Below are positions 56,738 through 63,402 of a DNA stretch of 64,000 bases, piece after piece. The DNA lies in NCBI GenBank assembly GCA_023384575.1, contig JAHDVP010000009.1, forward strand, positions 4,168 through 68,167, written 5' to 3'. The notes under the pieces were generated by a model. That model did not search any database and was not told the DNA's origin. It worked only from the letters and a program-made list of their open reading frames with translations. Each line of letters begins with the position of its first letter. The first letter of the stretch is position 1. This DNA is from Acidobacteriota bacterium (GTDB lineage Bacteria > Acidobacteriota > Vicinamibacteria > Vicinamibacterales > JAFNAJ01). The translations under genes were made by a program, and so were the position numbers.

Positions 56738-57762
56738 CACGAGCCGAGCACGAAGGCGAACGCCTCGCGCAGCTCGGCGTCGGCATTCGGGGGGAAGGCA
56801 TGGCCGACCCCGTCGACGACCTTGACGCGGACGGATGCTCCGGCGGCCTCGAGCCGGTTCGCTCCCGATCGGATGAGGGTGATGCCGGGATCCTGGGCTC
56901 CGGCGAGCACGTAGACACGCGGGAAGCCGCCGGGCGCCGGCTGCGGCACCGGTGCGACGCGATGCTCGTACACGCCAGCGATCGCCACCACGCCCGCGTA
57001 GAGGTCGGGTCGACGGGCTGCGCACAACAGCGCGAGGTTGGCGCCCTCCGAAAAGCCCGTGAGGACGAGACGCGTCTGGTCGACGCCGTGCTTCGCGCGC
57101 GCTTCGGCGATGGCGCGCTCGACCAGGTACTCGCCCTCCTCGACGCGGCCCCACGTGTAGCCGCGGCCTGACCTCGTCACGCCCTCCGGCGCGATCAGGA
57201 TGGCGCCGAGCTCCTGGGCCACGCGACGGTACACCGACGCGATCTCGGCGGCCCGCCCGCCGGTGCCGTGCAGCGCGACGAGCAGGGGCGCGGGTCGTGC
57301 CGGGGTGTACCCTCTCGGGAGGTAGGTGAGCACCGTGGCGCGGTCGGCCTCGACCTTGAAGGCGTCGAGCGCGCGCGCGCTGTTGGCTTCGACACGTTCG
57401 ACGATGGCCGCGAACTCCGGCAGCACGCGCAGCGGGTCGAGGTCCTCGTCGCGTCGGAGCGTCGCGAGGTGCGCGAAGCCGAGCTCCGCGCTGCGCGAGA
57501 GGGCGGAGAGGCCGCGCCCCAGCTCGCCGCCGCGGGCCGACACGGCAGCCAGGTTGTAATGAGCCAGCGGGTCGTCGGGAAAGGCGAGCGTCAGGCGCTC
57601 GGCGGCTTCGATCGCCTTCGGCCAGTCGGCCGCGTCGTACGCCTGGCGGAACGCCGTCTCGAGGATGCGCCGCGCCGGGCTCGCCTGTGCCAGCAGCGTC
57701 GCGCCGATGGCGGCGACGGCGCACGCCAGCGTCGCCGCCGCCACGACTCGTCTGCCGCTCAC
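56737..57762 (-). CDS. Alpha/beta hydrolase (PHB-depolymerase-like esterase) with TPR
   Basis: 341 aa from GTG 57762, which overlaps the upstream S9 stop (GTGA). A signal or anchor helix (VVAAATLACAVAAIGATLLA) is followed by a TPR-like pair of helices (ADWPKAIEAAERLTLAFPDDPLAHYNLAAV) at ~30-90. The hydrolase domain has LLVALHGTGGRAAE, Ser in LTGFSEGANLAL, Asp in LAGAQDPGI, and His in DGVGHAFPPN. Periplasmic esterase/peptidase-like. The TPR suggests docking to a partner, perhaps the S9 peptidase in the same operon. Confidence 0.82.
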   Translation of the reverse strand: MSGRRVVAAATLACAVAAIGATLLAQASPARRILETAFRQAYDAADWPKAIEAAERLTLAFPDDPLAHYNLAAVSARGGELGRGLSALSRSAELGFAHLATLRRDEDLDPLRVLPEFAAIVERVEANSARALDAFKVEADRATVLTYLPRGYTPARPAPLLVALHGTGGRAAEIASVYRRVAQELGAILIAPEGVTRSGRGYTWGRVEEGEYLVERAIAEARAKHGVDQTRLVLTGFSEGANLALLCAARRPDLYAGVVAIAGVYEHRVAPVPQPAPGGFPRVYVLAGAQDPGITLIRSGANRLEAAGASVRVKVVDGVGHAFPPNADAELREAFAFVLGS

Positions 57763-59852
57763 TGGCCTTTCACCCACTGATTCATCCAGTCGATGAACGT
57801 CCGGTACCACAAGGCGCTGTTCTGGGGTCTGTTGATCCAGTGTCCCTCGTCCGGGAAGTAGAGCAGCCGCGACGGCACGCCTCGCCGCTGCAGCGTCGTG
57901 AACAGCTGGAAGCCCTCGCCCACGGGCACGCGGAAGTCGAGCTCACCGTGAATCACCAGCGTGGGCGTCGCGAAGCGGTCGGCGTATCGGTGCGGCGACC
58001 ACTTCTCGTACGCCTCGAGGTTGGTCCACGGCGTGCCCTCGAACTCCCACTCGACGAACCAGAGCTCCTCGGTCACGCCGTACATGCTCGTGAGGTTGTA
58101 GACACCCGCATGACTGACGAGCGCCCTGAACCGGTCGGTGTGCCCGAGGAACCAGTTCATCATGTAGCCGCCGTACGACGCGCCGGCCGCGCCCATCCTC
58201 TCGGGATCCACGTACGGCAGCGTCTCGGCGTAGTCGAGTCCCTTCATCAGGTCTTCGAAGACCTTGCCGCCCCAGTCGTTGCGGATGCCGTCGATGAACG
58301 CCTGGCCGAAGCTGGTGGATCCGCGCGGGTTCGGCATGAAGACCACGTAGCCCGCCGATGCGAAGACCTGCGGGTTCCAGCGGTACGACCAGCCGTCGTT
58401 CCACGCGCTCTGCGGGCCGCCGTGCACGAGGAACAGCAGCGGGTAGCGGACGGTGGGATCGAAGTTGGCGGGCTTCACGATCCAGGCCTGCACGGGGGCC
58501 GCTCCGGCACCGGGGTACGTGACGCTCTCACCCGAGCGCAGTCGGAACGGCGCGAGCTTCGCGTCGTTGACGCGCGTGACCGCCGCGAGCCCTGAGCCGT
58601 CCGCCGCGACGCGCCAGATCTCCGCCGACGCCGTGAGGGTGTTGCGCGAGAAGACGACGGTCTTGCCGTCGGCCGCGAGTTGAAGACTCGCGTTCACGCC
58701 CCCCGTGACGATCGGCTTCGGCGTGCCCCCGAGGTCGACCTGCCACAGGGGAAGCGTGGCCTGGTCGTCGGCGGCGATGACGAACCCCGACGAGTCGGGA
58801 CGCCACACGTACTCGTCGACGTGCCGATCGAAGTCGGCCGTGGCGGCGCGGTGCGTCCCGGCCTGCCGGTCGAACACCATCAGCCGCCAGCGATCCGATT
58901 CGTAGCCGGCGCGCTCCTGCGCCCGGTAGGCGATGTACCGCCCATCCGGCGAGTACACCGGTCCACCATCGGCTCCCGGGTTGGTCGTGATCCGTGTCGG
59001 GACCGCGGCCGGGTCGGTGAATCGCATGACGAAGAGATCGCTGTTCGTGCTGATGGCCTCGACCGGGTCCGTCTTGCGGGCGAAGGCGACCTCGGCCGAG
59101 TCGGGCGAGAACGCGTAGTCCTCGGGGCCACCGAGCGAGAAGGGAGGCACGTCGGCCGCGCCGGGCGTGAGGTCGCGCGGCGGGCCGCTGCCGTCGGCGG
59201 GCATGACGAACAGGTGGCTGAACCGCCCTTCCCGCCACGTGTTCCAATGGCGGAACAGCAGGCCGTCAATCAGGCGCGCGCCCGTCTTGCGGGCTTCGTC
59301 CTCCTTGAGGCGGCGGGCGTTGCACGCCTCGTCGCGGCATTCCGGGTAGGCCTCGGACACGAAGGCCAGCCACCTGCCGTCGGGCGACCAGACGACGCCA
59401 GAGGCGCCGGTGGCGAGCGAGGTCAGCTTCGTCGGCTCGCCCTGGGCGGTCGTGCCCGACACCGCGACGGAGTAGATCTGCGGCGCGCCGTCGCGCGCCG
59501 ACACGAACGCCAGACGTGTGCCGTCAGGAGACCAGCGAGGCCGGTCGTCGCTCTTCGGCGACGCGACGAGACGGACGGCGTCGCCGCCCGCGACCGGCAC
59601 GATCCAGATGTCGTTGTTGCGGCCGTTGTTCTCGAGGTCGATTTCAGTGACGACGAACGCCACGCGCGTGCCGTCGGGCGAGAGCTGCGGGTCCGACACG
59701 CGATCGAGCTTCAGCATGTCGTCCACGGTGAACGGCGGGACGGTCTGGGCCCGCGCCACGGGCGCCACAACCAACCCGGCCATGAGCGCGAGCATCGCGG
59801 CGAAGGCCATCAGGCGGCCCTGCCGCCACATTCCTGGAAGTAATGAAAGCAT
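57759..59852 (-). CDS. S9 family peptidase (acylaminoacyl-peptidase type), exported
   Basis: 697 aa. Signal peptide (FAAMLALMAGLVVAPVARA), propeller of PD40 repeats (PQLSPDGTRVAFVVTE, VWSPDGRWLAFVSE), then the catalytic domain with Ser in GAAGASYGGYMMNW (~559), Asp in HGELDFRVPVGEG, and His in PDEGHWINRP. Expected to release N-terminal residues or dipeptides. I chose ATG 59852 because an SD-like ggagg lies 5 nt upstream; the longer frame adds nine residues. First gene of the operon with the esterase and GT4. Confidence 0.92.
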   Translation of the reverse strand: MLSLLPGMWRQGRLMAFAAMLALMAGLVVAPVARAQTVPPFTVDDMLKLDRVSDPQLSPDGTRVAFVVTEIDLENNGRNNDIWIVPVAGGDAVRLVASPKSDDRPRWSPDGTRLAFVSARDGAPQIYSVAVSGTTAQGEPTKLTSLATGASGVVWSPDGRWLAFVSEAYPECRDEACNARRLKEDEARKTGARLIDGLLFRHWNTWREGRFSHLFVMPADGSGPPRDLTPGAADVPPFSLGGPEDYAFSPDSAEVAFARKTDPVEAISTNSDLFVMRFTDPAAVPTRITTNPGADGGPVYSPDGRYIAYRAQERAGYESDRWRLMVFDRQAGTHRAATADFDRHVDEYVWRPDSSGFVIAADDQATLPLWQVDLGGTPKPIVTGGVNASLQLAADGKTVVFSRNTLTASAEIWRVAADGSGLAAVTRVNDAKLAPFRLRSGESVTYPGAGAAPVQAWIVKPANFDPTVRYPLLFLVHGGPQSAWNDGWSYRWNPQVFASAGYVVFMPNPRGSTSFGQAFIDGIRNDWGGKVFEDLMKGLDYAETLPYVDPERMGAAGASYGGYMMNWFLGHTDRFRALVSHAGVYNLTSMYGVTEELWFVEWEFEGTPWTNLEAYEKWSPHRYADRFATPTLVIHGELDFRVPVGEGFQLFTTLQRRGVPSRLLYFPDEGHWINRPQNSALWYRTFIDWMNQWVKGQ

Positions 59853-59903
59853 CACGTCCTCCGGGGTAATAGGGTACACCCAGGGATGGGCGCAAGGCTC
59901 GCC

Positions 59904-60713
59904 CTACGGTGAGGGTTCCCAGGCGGGGGGGCGCGCGGCGAAGCCGTAGGCCGTGAACCCGCCGTCGACGGCCACGACCTGCCCGGTGACGTACGACGCA
60001 GCCGGCAAACAGAGAAAGGCCACCACCCGCGCCACCTCCTCGGGATCGGCCACGCGGCCGAGCGGCGTCCTGGCGCGGATCCGGTCGAGCGTCGCCGCGT
60101 CGCCGAGCACGGGCTCGACCAGTCTGGTCTTCGTGTACCACGGCGAGACGACGTTGACGCGGATGCCGGCGGGCGCCCACTCGACGGCAATCGCGCGCGC
60201 GAACTGGTGCAGTCCGCCCTTGGTCAGCGCGTACACGGACCCCGATCCGACCGACACCTGCCCGCCGACCGAGCCGATGAACACCGCGCTCGCCCGACGC
60301 GAGGCGGCGAGCCTCGGGTACGCGAGCCGCGCGACATCGAACGCCGAGACCAGGTTCGTCTCGAGGATTCGTCGGAACTCCTCGCCGGTGTAGTCGGCCG
60401 TCGGTTTGCGGACGTTCATGCCCGCGCTGTGGACGAGCACTTCGAGGCGATCCCACGCCGCCGGCCAGCCGGCCCCGAGCGCCGCCCGGCCCTCGGCCGT
60501 TGCCACGTCGGCGCGGAGCTCCAACACCGGCCGGCCCGTCTCCTGCTCGAGGGCCAGGCGGTCGTCCAGATCGACGGGCGTGCGCGACACCACCAGCACG
60601 TTCGCACCGAGCCGCCCGAGCTCGACGGCCGTGGCCCAGCCGATTCCTCGTGAACCGCCCACGATCATCGCCCGCGCGCCGTCGAGCCGCCACACCGCGT
60701 CGTTTGTCGTCAT
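59904..60713 (-). CDS. Short-chain dehydrogenase/reductase
   Basis: 269 aa. Cofactor motif [13 protein letters not shown] (GGxxxGIG instead of TGxxxGIG), Asn in LVHSAGMN, catalytic Ser in IGSVGG and Tyr/Lys in [10 protein letters not shown]; ending [13 protein letters not shown] is the classical SDR C-terminus. Resembles tropinone-reductase-like and 3-oxoacyl-ACP reductase-like enzymes; substrate open. The ATG has no SD and sits 6 nt after TACACT, so the mRNA is probably leaderless. Divergent from the dihydrouridine synthase. Confidence 0.9.
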
Positions 60714-60719
60714 GGGGGG

Positions 60720-60749: not shown

Positions 60750-61838
60750 ATGGACCTCAGGAAGACGCTGACGGGCGCCGTCGTCATGGCGCCGATGACG
60801 AAGGGGTCGAACCTGCCCTACCGGCAGCTCTGCGTGGAGCTCGGCGCGCGCGTGCTCGTCGGCGAGATGGCCGTGGCGAGACGCCTGAAGCAGCGGCGCC
60901 GCGGCGAGCTGGCGCTGATCCGTCGCTTCGACGGTGAACCGTGCTTCGGAGTACAGCTCGCCGGCAACAAGTACGACGAGATGGCGTGGGCGGCCGCGCT
61001 CGCCGAAGCTCGCGGCGCCGACTTCGTCGACGTCAACCTCGGCTGCCCGATCGATCACTTCACGCGCAAGGGACTGGGTGCCGCGCTCGCCCGGCAGCCC
61101 GGACGCGTCCGCCGCATCGTCGAATCGATGCGCGGGGCCGTGCAGTCGGTGCCCATGACGGTGAAGATCCGCCTGGGCTGGGACGCCGAGCACCTGAACT
61201 ACCTCGACCTGGCTCGGGCCGCCGTCGACGGCGGCGCCGCTGCCGTGTTCGTGCACGGACGCACGCGCGTCGATCGCTATCGCCATGCCGCGAACTGGGA
61301 CGCGATCGGGGAGCTCGCCGCGGCGCTGCCGGTGCCCGTCGTCGGCAACGGCGACCTGCTGTTTCGTCACGAGATCGAAGCCGCCGTGGCCCGCAGCGGC
61401 TGCGCCGGCGTGATGGTGGCGCGCGGCGCGCTGATTGCGCCGTGGATCTTCCATGCCGCGACCGGCGCCCCTGAGGACGTCGCCGCCGACGCGCGCCTCG
61501 AGATCTACCGACGTTACGTCGCGCTGGCGCGGGCGCACTGGGGCGACGACGATCACGGCCTCGCCCGCGTGACCGAGTTCACGCGCTGGCACCTCGGGTT
61601 CTGGTGCCGCTACCGGCCGCCGCGTGCCGACGGCAGCTACCCGACCATGCAGGAGCGCGACGCGGTGTTCGTGCCGCGCTCCGCGCTCGAAGCCCTGCTC
61701 TCGCGCGGCGACGAACCGGCGCTGGCGTATCTCACCGCATGCCTTGTCGAGCACCGCGAGGTCGTCCCGGGCGAAGCGCCCGATCGCGACGGAGGTGAGG
61801 ACGCGGAGGGCGCCGCGGCGCCCCTCGTGGCCGGGTAG
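60750..61838 (+). CDS. tRNA-dihydrouridine synthase, Dus3-like
   Basis: 362-aa FMN enzyme reducing uridines in tRNA. Catalytic Cys in [18 protein letters not shown]. The sequence follows the eukaryotic Dus3 pattern: [73 protein letters not shown], and a C-terminal HWGDDDHG ... FWCRYRPP segment. DusA/B/C have GCPxxK-type motifs and lack that C-terminus. The zinc-finger N-terminus of eukaryotic Dus3 is absent. ATG 60750 is preferred over GTG 60735. The last ~25 residues are acidic and low-complexity. Confidence 0.87.
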
Positions 61839-61883: not shown

Positions 61884-62855
61884 TCACGCCCGCGAGGTTC
61901 GCCCGACCGGCGCATGGGCCGGGTGGCCGAACTCGTGCGGCACGCCGCCGAGCCCCAGCTCGATCCACCGCGCGTCGAATCGGGCCCAGAGCTTCTCCTC
62001 TGGCAGCTTGCTGTGACTGACCGGGAACTCGAGGACCTCGTTCGGCACGCGCAGGTGGTTCGCGATCGGATAGACCGTCTCCGGCGGCGTGATCGAATCG
62101 ACGAGGCCGACGCCGACGACGGTCGGGCACCGGACGCGTCCCGCGAAGTTGATCGGGTCGAAGTAGCGGAGTGCGAGCATCACGTCTTCGGCGCACTCCG
62201 GGAACCTCTCGACATACCGAGCGATCTCGATGCCCGATCCGCCCTTCACGAAGAAGAGCCGGCCCTCGGCCCAGCCCAGCGTCGGCACCGCGAGGGCCAG
62301 CAGGTCGGCCTGTGGCCGCACGGCCTCGGCCATGACGGCGAGGCCGCCGGCGAAGCTCTGGCCGTGGACGATCGTCCTGACGAGGTGGCCGTCGAGTTGC
62401 TGTCTCGCCAGCGTGACGGCCCGCAGGAAGTCGCAGACGGCTCCCCGGAGGATGGCGGTCTCGGGTGCCGACAGGCCGGTCACGACCCAACCCCATGGCG
62501 ACTGGCGCTCGCAGGCGCCGCGCGATCGGCCGTAGCCGCGGATGTCGATGCCGGCGACGTTCAGGCCGCCACGCGCCCACGCCATCTGGATCTCGGGCCC
62601 GTCGTCCCGGTAGCCGTGCGCGTGGACGACCAGGGGGCGCGGCCGGCCGTCGCGCCAGCGGACCAGGTACATCGAGACCCGGACACCGCCGAGCGAGCGG
62701 AAGCTGGAGAGGGTCAGCTCCAGGTTCGAGGGATCGACGAGCGTACTGTGCGGCTCGACGTCGGGATCGACGGCATCGAGTTCACGAAGCGTTGCCTCCC
62801 AGAACGCGTCGAAGTCCGGGGGACGGGAGAGCGGTGGGGTGAAGCGCTGTCGCAC
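61884..62855 (-). CDS. Acetyl-xylan esterase/cephalosporin deacetylase-like hydrolase (AXE1)
   Basis: 323-aa alpha/beta hydrolase without signal peptide. AXE1 landmarks: PPDFDAFWEATLREL at the start, VHAHGYRDDGPE, Ser in VHGQSFAGGLAVMAE, Asp in GLVDSITPPETVYPIANHL, His in PVSHSKLPEEK. Expected to remove acetyl groups from xylo-oligosaccharides or similar. GTG start; no SD close by. Divergent from the cNMP-binding gene. Confidence 0.85.
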   Translation of the reverse strand: MRQRFTPPLSRPPDFDAFWEATLRELDAVDPDVEPHSTLVDPSNLELTLSSFRSLGGVRVSMYLVRWRDGRPRPLVVHAHGYRDDGPEIQMAWARGGLNVAGIDIRGYGRSRGACERQSPWGWVVTGLSAPETAILRGAVCDFLRAVTLARQQLDGHLVRTIVHGQSFAGGLAVMAEAVRPQADLLALAVPTLGWAEGRLFFVKGGSGIEIARYVERFPECAEDVMLALRYFDPINFAGRVRCPTVVGVGLVDSITPPETVYPIANHLRVPNEVLEFPVSHSKLPEEKLWARFDARWIELGLGGVPHEFGHPAHAPVGRTSRA

Positions 62856-62921
62856 GCTCGGCGGGCCTCAACTCCTGGCGGCTGGCCTGCGGCCGTCGCC
62901 GCGTTGTCGTCGGGTTGCTCG

Positions 62922-62927
62922 TATAAT
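62922..62927 (+). promoter_or_regulatory. -10 box for the leaderless cNMP-binding gene
   Basis: TATAAT (full consensus), 7 nt, then ATG 62935; no SD. Confidence 0.6.
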
Positions 62928-62934
62928 CCGCGGG

Positions 62935-63402
62935 ATGGCTTCGGTCGACTTCGTGGCGCAGCTCGACTTCTTCGCCGGCCTGCCCGCGTGGGCGCTCGAG
63001 CGCGTGGCGGCTTCGGCGACCGAGCGTGCGCTCGAGCCGAATACGTACGTGCTCCACCAGCACGACAAGGCCGAATCGCTCTTCATCCTGATCGAAGGCG
63101 AAGTGCAGATACTGCTGAGGTTCGAGGGCATCGACGACCTGCTCGTCGGGGCGACCCACCAGCCTGGCGCGGTGCTCGGCTGGTCCGTGTTCAGGATACC
63201 GCATCGGTACACGGCTTCGGTCAGGTGTGACGGCCGTGTCCGTGTGGTCGAGGTGCCCGCCTCGACGCTGCACGAGCTGATCGAGACCGATCCGCAGGTC
63301 GGTCTCACCATCCTGCGCCGGCTCGCCTCGGCCGTCGCGAGCCGTCTCGAACGAACGCGCGACCTGCTGGCCGACCATTCAGAGGGCTCGTCGCGGTCCT
63401 AG
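62935..63402 (+). CDS. Cyclic nucleotide-binding-domain protein
   Basis: 155 aa: one cNMP-binding domain (VDFVAQLDFFAGLPAWALERVA, LFILIEGEVQILL, GAVLGWSVF, HRYTASVRCDGRVRVVEVPASTLHELIETDP) and a short C-terminal helix, with no helix-turn-helix. In the binding-cassette position it has PGAVLGWSVFRIPHRYTAS, where Crp has GExxx..RxA; the Arg is shifted, so ligand binding is uncertain. 35 nt ahead of a second gene of the same fold. Confidence 0.82.
   Translation: MASVDFVAQLDFFAGLPAWALERVAASATERALEPNTYVLHQHDKAESLFILIEGEVQILLRFEGIDDLLVGATHQPGAVLGWSVFRIPHRYTASVRCDGRVRVVEVPASTLHELIETDPQVGLTILRRLASAVASRLERTRDLLADHSEGSSRS

What the first reader, a model, noticed from the sequence alone, without database searches (positions are those of the whole stretch)
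60750..61838. A bacterial tRNA-dihydrouridine synthase with the eukaryotic Dus3 pattern
The protein shares a chain of motifs with eukaryotic Dus3/DUS3L that I recall from that family: GxxNLPxRxxC, GEMAV, FGVQLxG, DFVDxNxGCPID, HGRxRxxRY, GNGDxL, ARGALxxPWxF, and the C-terminal HWGxD...CRYxP. Bacterial DusA/B/C differ at most of these, notably GCPxxK in place of GCPID. It lacks the zinc fingers. If confirmed it is a bacterial relative of an enzyme otherwise linked to D47 and mRNA dihydrouridine.
Basis: partly seen in the sequence, partly recalled or inferred. Interest (0 to 1): 0.62.

Follow-up and report, generated by a model that had tools for sequence, protein, structure and literature searches.

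The report
Bacterial Dus3-type tRNA dihydrouridine synthase
A bacterium carries, beside its normal bacterial enzyme, a second RNA-modifying enzyme whose nearest relatives outside bacteria are the eukaryotic Dus3 enzymes that make dihydrouridine at tRNA position 47, so an enzyme class described as eukaryotic-only also exists in several bacterial phyla.

Summary
It is not the genome's DusB, which is a separate gene that passes NCBI's DusB cut-off; this protein falls 60 bits short. It belongs to a sharply separate bacterial subfamily found in Acidobacteriota, Planctomycetota, Krumholzibacteriota and one unnamed phylum, and in 0 of 892 sampled genomes of three other phyla. NLP[FY]R, GCPI[DHEN] and HxRxRxxRY occur in 68-74 of 74 members and in 0 of 127 other bacterial Dus. 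Profiles of this subfamily beat DusB profiles by about 115 bits on yeast Dus3 and human DUS3L, and on no other Dus. The C-terminal domain profile matches only Dus3 (53-55 bits; all others about 2 or less). Maximum-likelihood trees join subfamily and eukaryotic Dus3 (100/99 to 100/100). Main caveat: the eukaryotic Dus3 sequences were recalled from memory because none is held here; the score result survives 30% random error. The CCCH zinc fingers are absent. Catalytic Cys, Lys, His and Arg are invariant. U47 reduction is inferred, not shown. The papers searched describe Dus3 as eukaryotic only.

The parts
60750..61838 (+). CDS, 362 aa, Dus3-type tRNA-dihydrouridine synthase
   Evidence: (PF01207 2.3e-64)
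60804..60833 (+). [10 protein letters not shown] (aa 19-28), Dus3-type N-terminal signature
   Evidence: NLP[FY]R in 68 of 74 members, 0 of 127 other bacterial Dus; the published Dus3 signature is LTTVGNPPFRR (PMC3674756)
61020..61055 (+). [12 protein letters not shown] (aa 91-102) with the predicted catalytic Cys99 (codon 61044-61046)
   Evidence: C99 invariant in all 75 aligned rows; NXGCP is the catalytic motif of all Dus (PMC3674756)
61164..61172 (+). KIR (Lys139, Arg141), conserved KXR catalytic motif
   Evidence: Invariant in all 75 rows
61254..61280 (+). HGRTRVDRY (aa 169-177), HXR motif with the Dus3-type RY
   Evidence: 74 of 74 members, 0 of 127 other bacterial Dus
61470..61751 (+). 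C-terminal helical domain (about aa 241-334), Dus3-type
   Evidence: C-terminal profile: 53-55 bits to yeast and human Dus3, 2.1 or less to every other Dus; helices 246-264, 268-285, 312-317, 322-333 in the model
61791..61835 (+). Disordered C-terminal tail (aa 348-362)
   Evidence: pLDDT below 50

Best explanation
The gene encodes a bacterial, zinc-finger-free member of the Dus3 branch of the dihydrouridine synthases. It is an FMN enzyme with a TIM barrel and a C-terminal helical domain. By analogy with all Dus enzymes, NADPH reduces the FMN, the flavin passes a hydride to C6 of a uridine flipped into the barrel, and Cys99 protonates C5. The C-terminal domain, shared with eukaryotic Dus3 and not with DusB, most likely sets how the tRNA lies, so that the target is U47 in the variable loop. 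It works beside a separate DusB that serves the D-loop. Shown here: the gene, the family split, the Dus3 relationship, the conserved catalytic residues, the predicted fold, and U47-bearing tRNAs in the genome. Inferred: NADPH/FMN chemistry, tRNA as substrate, position 47. I put the Dus3-branch placement at about 0.9 and U47 as main target at about 0.5.
For: NCBIfam: 233 bits to DusB TIGR00737 against a cut-off of 293, while the genome's other Dus (L001) scores 306. Bacterial subfamily profile against DusB profile: yeast Dus3 286 v 171, human DUS3L 348 v 231; Dus1, Dus2, Dus4, DusA, DusB, DusC show no such preference. The margin stays at 53 bits or more (minimum of 10 draws) with 30% random substitutions in the recalled sequences. 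C-terminal profile matches Dus3 alone. Trees: 100/99, 100/99, 100/100 for subfamily plus eukaryotic Dus3, with different taxa and aligners. C99, K139, R141, H169, R171 invariant. AlphaFold2 model pLDDT 88, pTM 0.88, best PDB fold matches all Dus. U47 in 26 of 31 five-base variable loops listed for this genome (repeats included; 17 of 18 distinct tRNAs by my count once Tyr, which has a long variable arm, is set aside). Dus3 makes D47 in eukaryotes (PMC9775027, PMC9176250).
Against: Yeast Dus3 and human DUS3L sequences were recalled from memory, since no eukaryotic proteome and no Dus3 structure is held; only the signature printed in PMC3674756 checks them independently. CCCH zinc fingers are absent. 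Position specificity in Dus changes within subfamilies: DusB can make D17 alone, D17/20/20a, or also D47 (PMC9775027, PMC11162810). U47 is common in all bacteria (PMC9176250), so its presence here does not discriminate. There is no conserved gene neighbour.
Confidence: 0.55

Rival explanations
1. It is a Dus3-branch protein by descent, but in bacteria it modifies something else: a D-loop uridine, several tRNA positions, or another RNA.
For: Dus position specificity drifts inside one subfamily (DusB, PMC9775027, PMC11162810); the zinc fingers of Dus3 are missing; D47 has been reported in only one bacterial tRNA so far (PMC9176250).
Against: The genome already has a DusB that can serve the D-loop, and the shared C-terminal domain is specific to Dus3.
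Confidence: 0.35
2. It is a fast-evolving DusB paralogue; the Dus3 likeness is convergence, retained ancestral motifs, or a tree artefact.
For: DusB is the best NCBIfam and PDB hit; GNGD is common in DusB and GCPI occurs in Dus4.
Against: Grouping with Dus3 holds at 100 with long branches removed; the C-terminal domains of this family and DusB do not match each other; three motifs never occur in 127 other bacterial Dus.
Confidence: 0.05
3. Bacteria acquired the gene recently from a eukaryote.
For: Patchy spread over a few phyla.
Against: Members fill four phyla with deep branches, and the two eukaryotic sequences nest inside or beside them, not the reverse.
Confidence: 0.04

Closest known systems
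Eukaryotic Dus3 / DUS3L (KOG2333)
   Same: Catalytic barrel motifs GNLPxR, GCPID, HGRxRxxRY, ARGALxxPW, and the C-terminal domain HWGxDxxG...RYxP...LExLL; 33-43% identity over about 280-350 residues
   Different: No CCCH zinc fingers or long disordered N-terminus; bacterial; substrate unknown
DusB (TIGR00737), incl. E. coli DusB and B. subtilis DusB1
   Same: Dus fold and catalytic residues; 35-40% identity over the barrel
   Different: Scores below the DusB cut-off; C-terminal domain does not match; GCPID in place of the DusB-type GCPxx; a true DusB is present elsewhere in the genome (L001)
Thermotoga maritima TM0096 (1vhn), DusC, DusA, Dus1, Dus2, Dus4
   Same: Same superfamily and fold
   Different: Clearly more distant in profile scores and trees

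Membership tests
Dus (COG0042, PF01207) | Dus Pfam domain above cut-off, catalytic NXGCP, KXR, HXR | tested here: met
   PF01207 217.9 bits v 20.4; C99, K139, R141, H169, R171 invariant
Dus3 | N-terminal signature LTTVGNPPFRR (published, PMC3674756) | tested here: met
   [11 protein letters not shown] here, LTFGGNLPFRR in L039; NLP[FY]R in 68 of 74 members, 0 of 127 others; the first positions vary
Dus3 | Groups with eukaryotic Dus3 in a Dus tree | tested here: met
   100/99, 100/99, 100/100; eukaryotic sequences recalled from memory
Dus3 | Dus3-type C-terminal domain | tested here: met
   53-55 bits v 2.1 or less for all other Dus
Dus3 | N-terminal CCCH zinc finger(s) | tested here: not met
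   Only the Dus domain in Pfam; the barrel starts at about residue 10. Hence 'Dus3-type', not a full eukaryotic Dus3
Dus3 | Makes D47 | not testable with these tools
   Needs RNA work; U47 is available in the tRNAs
DusB | TIGR00737 equivalog cut-off 293.3 bits | tested here: not met
   233.3 bits; genome's own DusB 306.1
DusA / DusC | TIGR00742 / NF008774 / NF007838 cut-offs | tested here: not met
   51, 82 and 117 bits against 397, 269 and 395
Archaeal Dus (TIGR00736) | 218.7-bit cut-off | tested here: not met
   18 bits

The most novel reading that the evidence does not exclude
Eukaryotic Dus3 came from bacteria of this subfamily (nearest here: two genomes of the Planctomycetota sample, L177 and L178), so this branch of Dus, and perhaps its D47 synthesis, is a bacterial invention that eukaryotes acquired and later fitted with zinc fingers.
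Probability: 0.35. Interest if true: 0.65.

Novelty: new variant of a known kind. Interest (0 to 1): 0.5.

Why it matters
The published classification puts Dus3 in eukaryotes only and makes it the ancestral eukaryotic Dus (PMC3674756, PMC9775027). A bacterial Dus3 branch changes that picture: it offers a bacterial source for eukaryotic Dus3, predicts D47 in phyla whose tRNA modifications are, as far as I know, unmapped, and gives a minimal enzyme without zinc fingers with which to ask what the zinc fingers and the C-terminal domain contribute to choosing position 47. No Dus3 structure turned up in the PDB copy searched; a compact 362-residue bacterial version may be easier to crystallise. It also affects annotation: such proteins score below the DusB cut-off and have no model of their own in NCBIfam.

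Tried and rejected
Solved Dus3 structures: none in the PDB copy. Literature on bacterial Dus3: none found. Viral contigs: 26 pattern hits, none a relative. Plasmids: all hits below 60% identity, the annotated ones among the best rows called DusB. Conserved gene neighbourhood: only lineage-specific neighbours and shadow reading frames. U47 in the genome's tRNAs: present, but not discriminating because U47 is usual in bacteria. Nesting of eukaryotic Dus3 inside the bacterial branch: favoured by the trees, but the alternative is not rejected (AU p 0.20). One clade of all eukaryotic Dus is weakly rejected (p 0.031). Archaea, including Asgard, could not be reached with the search centres available.

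Full report
What is there. Window 60750-61838 (+) is an intact gene for a 362-residue protein. Its only Pfam domain is Dus, 217.9 bits. It lies divergently from a short-chain dehydrogenase gene (59904-60716, minus) with a 33-base gap. AlphaFold2 gives a confident model, pLDDT 88 and pTM 0.88, with a barrel, a C-terminal helical part and a disordered tail; its best fold matches in the PDB are all Dus enzymes, led by E. coli DusB; no Dus3 is among them.

It is not the genome's DusB. The genome (5.9 Mb, complete by estimate) holds two convincing Dus genes. The other, L001, passes the NCBIfam DusB cut-off (306.1 v 293.3 bits), while this protein scores 233.3. DusA, DusC and archaeal models are missed by far.

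A distinct bacterial subfamily. Full-length relatives (E of 1e-60 or better) occur in 17 of the 39 other genomes listed as relatives. In even samples of phyla the counts at that level are: own phylum 16 of 199, own genome included, Planctomycetota 11 of 149, Krumholzibacteriota 35 of 80, an unnamed phylum 4 of 46, and 0 of 297, 0 of 299 and 0 of 296 in the phyla of a Desulfobulbaceae, an Acidaminococcus and a Spirochaetes genome. Record titles place the close relatives in Acidobacteria, including Luteitalea, so the window is most likely from Acidobacteriota. Nearly every carrier among the relatives also has a second, DusB-like match.

Sequence marks. Among 201 distinct bacterial Dus sequences gathered here, two profile scores split them into 74 and 127, with almost nothing between. 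NLP[FY]R is in 68 v 0, GCPI[DEHNY] in 72 v 0, H[GAP]R[ST][RK]..RY in 74 v 0. GNGD (74 v 92) is not diagnostic; note that the genome scan that supplied many of the 127 used a GNGD pattern, which inflates that count. The published Dus3 signature, LTTVGNPPFRR, comes from PMC3674756 and agrees with the family's GNLPFRR.

Relation to eukaryotic Dus3. No eukaryotic proteome is held and no Dus3 turned up in the PDB, so I used yeast Dus3 and human DUS3L catalytic domains written from memory, with yeast Dus1, Dus2 and Dus4 likewise, human Dus2 and Thermotoga Dus from PDB alignments, and E. coli DusA, B and C from the genome. A profile built only from the bacterial subfamily scores yeast Dus3 at 286 and human DUS3L at 348 bits; a DusB profile scores them at 171 and 231. 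Dus1, Dus2, Dus4, DusA, DusB and DusC do not share this preference. Random substitution of 30% of the recalled residues still leaves a margin of about 53 bits or more, so ordinary memory slips cannot account for it. Split by domain, the C-terminal profile of the bacterial family matches the two Dus3 sequences at 53 and 55 bits and everything else at 2.1 or below; the DusB C-terminal profile does the reverse. An alignment shows the shared C-terminal block directly.

Trees. Three maximum-likelihood trees (LG+C20, differing in taxa and aligner) all join the bacterial subfamily and eukaryotic Dus3: 100/99, 100/99, 100/100 with the long branches removed. Eukaryotic Dus3 falls inside the bacterial diversity, with Krumholzibacteria in the first tree and with L177 and L178, from the Planctomycetota sample, in the later ones. 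That nesting is only suggestive: a tree with the bacterial family alone as a clade is not rejected (AU p 0.20), and one clade of all eukaryotic Dus is only weakly rejected (p 0.031).

How it most likely works. Catalytic Cys99, Lys139, Arg141, His169 and Arg171 are invariant in all 75 aligned rows, so normal Dus chemistry is expected: NADPH to FMN to uridine C6, with the cysteine as acid (established Dus mechanism, inferred here). The target is inferred from kinship. Dus3 makes D47 (PMC9775027, PMC9176250). The genome's tRNAs offer it: by my count, 17 of 18 distinct sampled tRNAs with a five-base variable loop have U47, mostly in AGGUC-like loops (Tyr, given a five-base loop by the program, is set aside as a long-arm tRNA). 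This is necessary but weak evidence, since U47 is usual in bacteria (PMC9176250). D47 has been reported in one bacterial tRNA so far, made by a DusB (PMC11162810).

What is known and what is new. Kasprzak et al. 2012 state that the Dus3 cluster contains eukaryotic sequences, and a later study repeats that Dus1-4 are found in eukaryotes. Searches of the held papers found no report of bacterial Dus3. I therefore call it a new variant of a known kind: a zinc-finger-free bacterial Dus3-type subfamily.

Noticed in passing
window 59904-60716 (-): Short-chain dehydrogenase (adh_short_C2, 4e-59) divergent from the Dus gene with a 33-base gap.
   Followed up: no
window 57759-59879 (-) and 61884-62855 (-): S9 prolyl oligopeptidase with PD40 repeats, and an AXE1-type acetyl xylan esterase, lie on either side of the dehydrogenase-Dus pair.
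   Followed up: no
window 62839-63402 (+): Small cyclic-nucleotide-binding domain protein (cNMP_binding 4e-13) without an obvious second domain.
   Followed up: no
L177 and L178 (Planctomycetota sample): The bacterial members closest to eukaryotic Dus3; L178 reads GCPIDLVTRRGGGSALLNRS, close to the recalled human GCPIDLVYKKGGGCALMNRS.
   Followed up: partly
G007 (same order): Shows only the Dus3-type gene and no second Dus match although about 98% complete; possibly a lineage relying on this enzyme alone.
   Followed up: no
L160, L161, L162, L164 (G227, G224, G226): Further divergent bacterial Dus paralogues on long branches, near DusC or Thermotoga Dus in the tree, in genomes that also carry the Dus3-type gene.
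   Followed up: no
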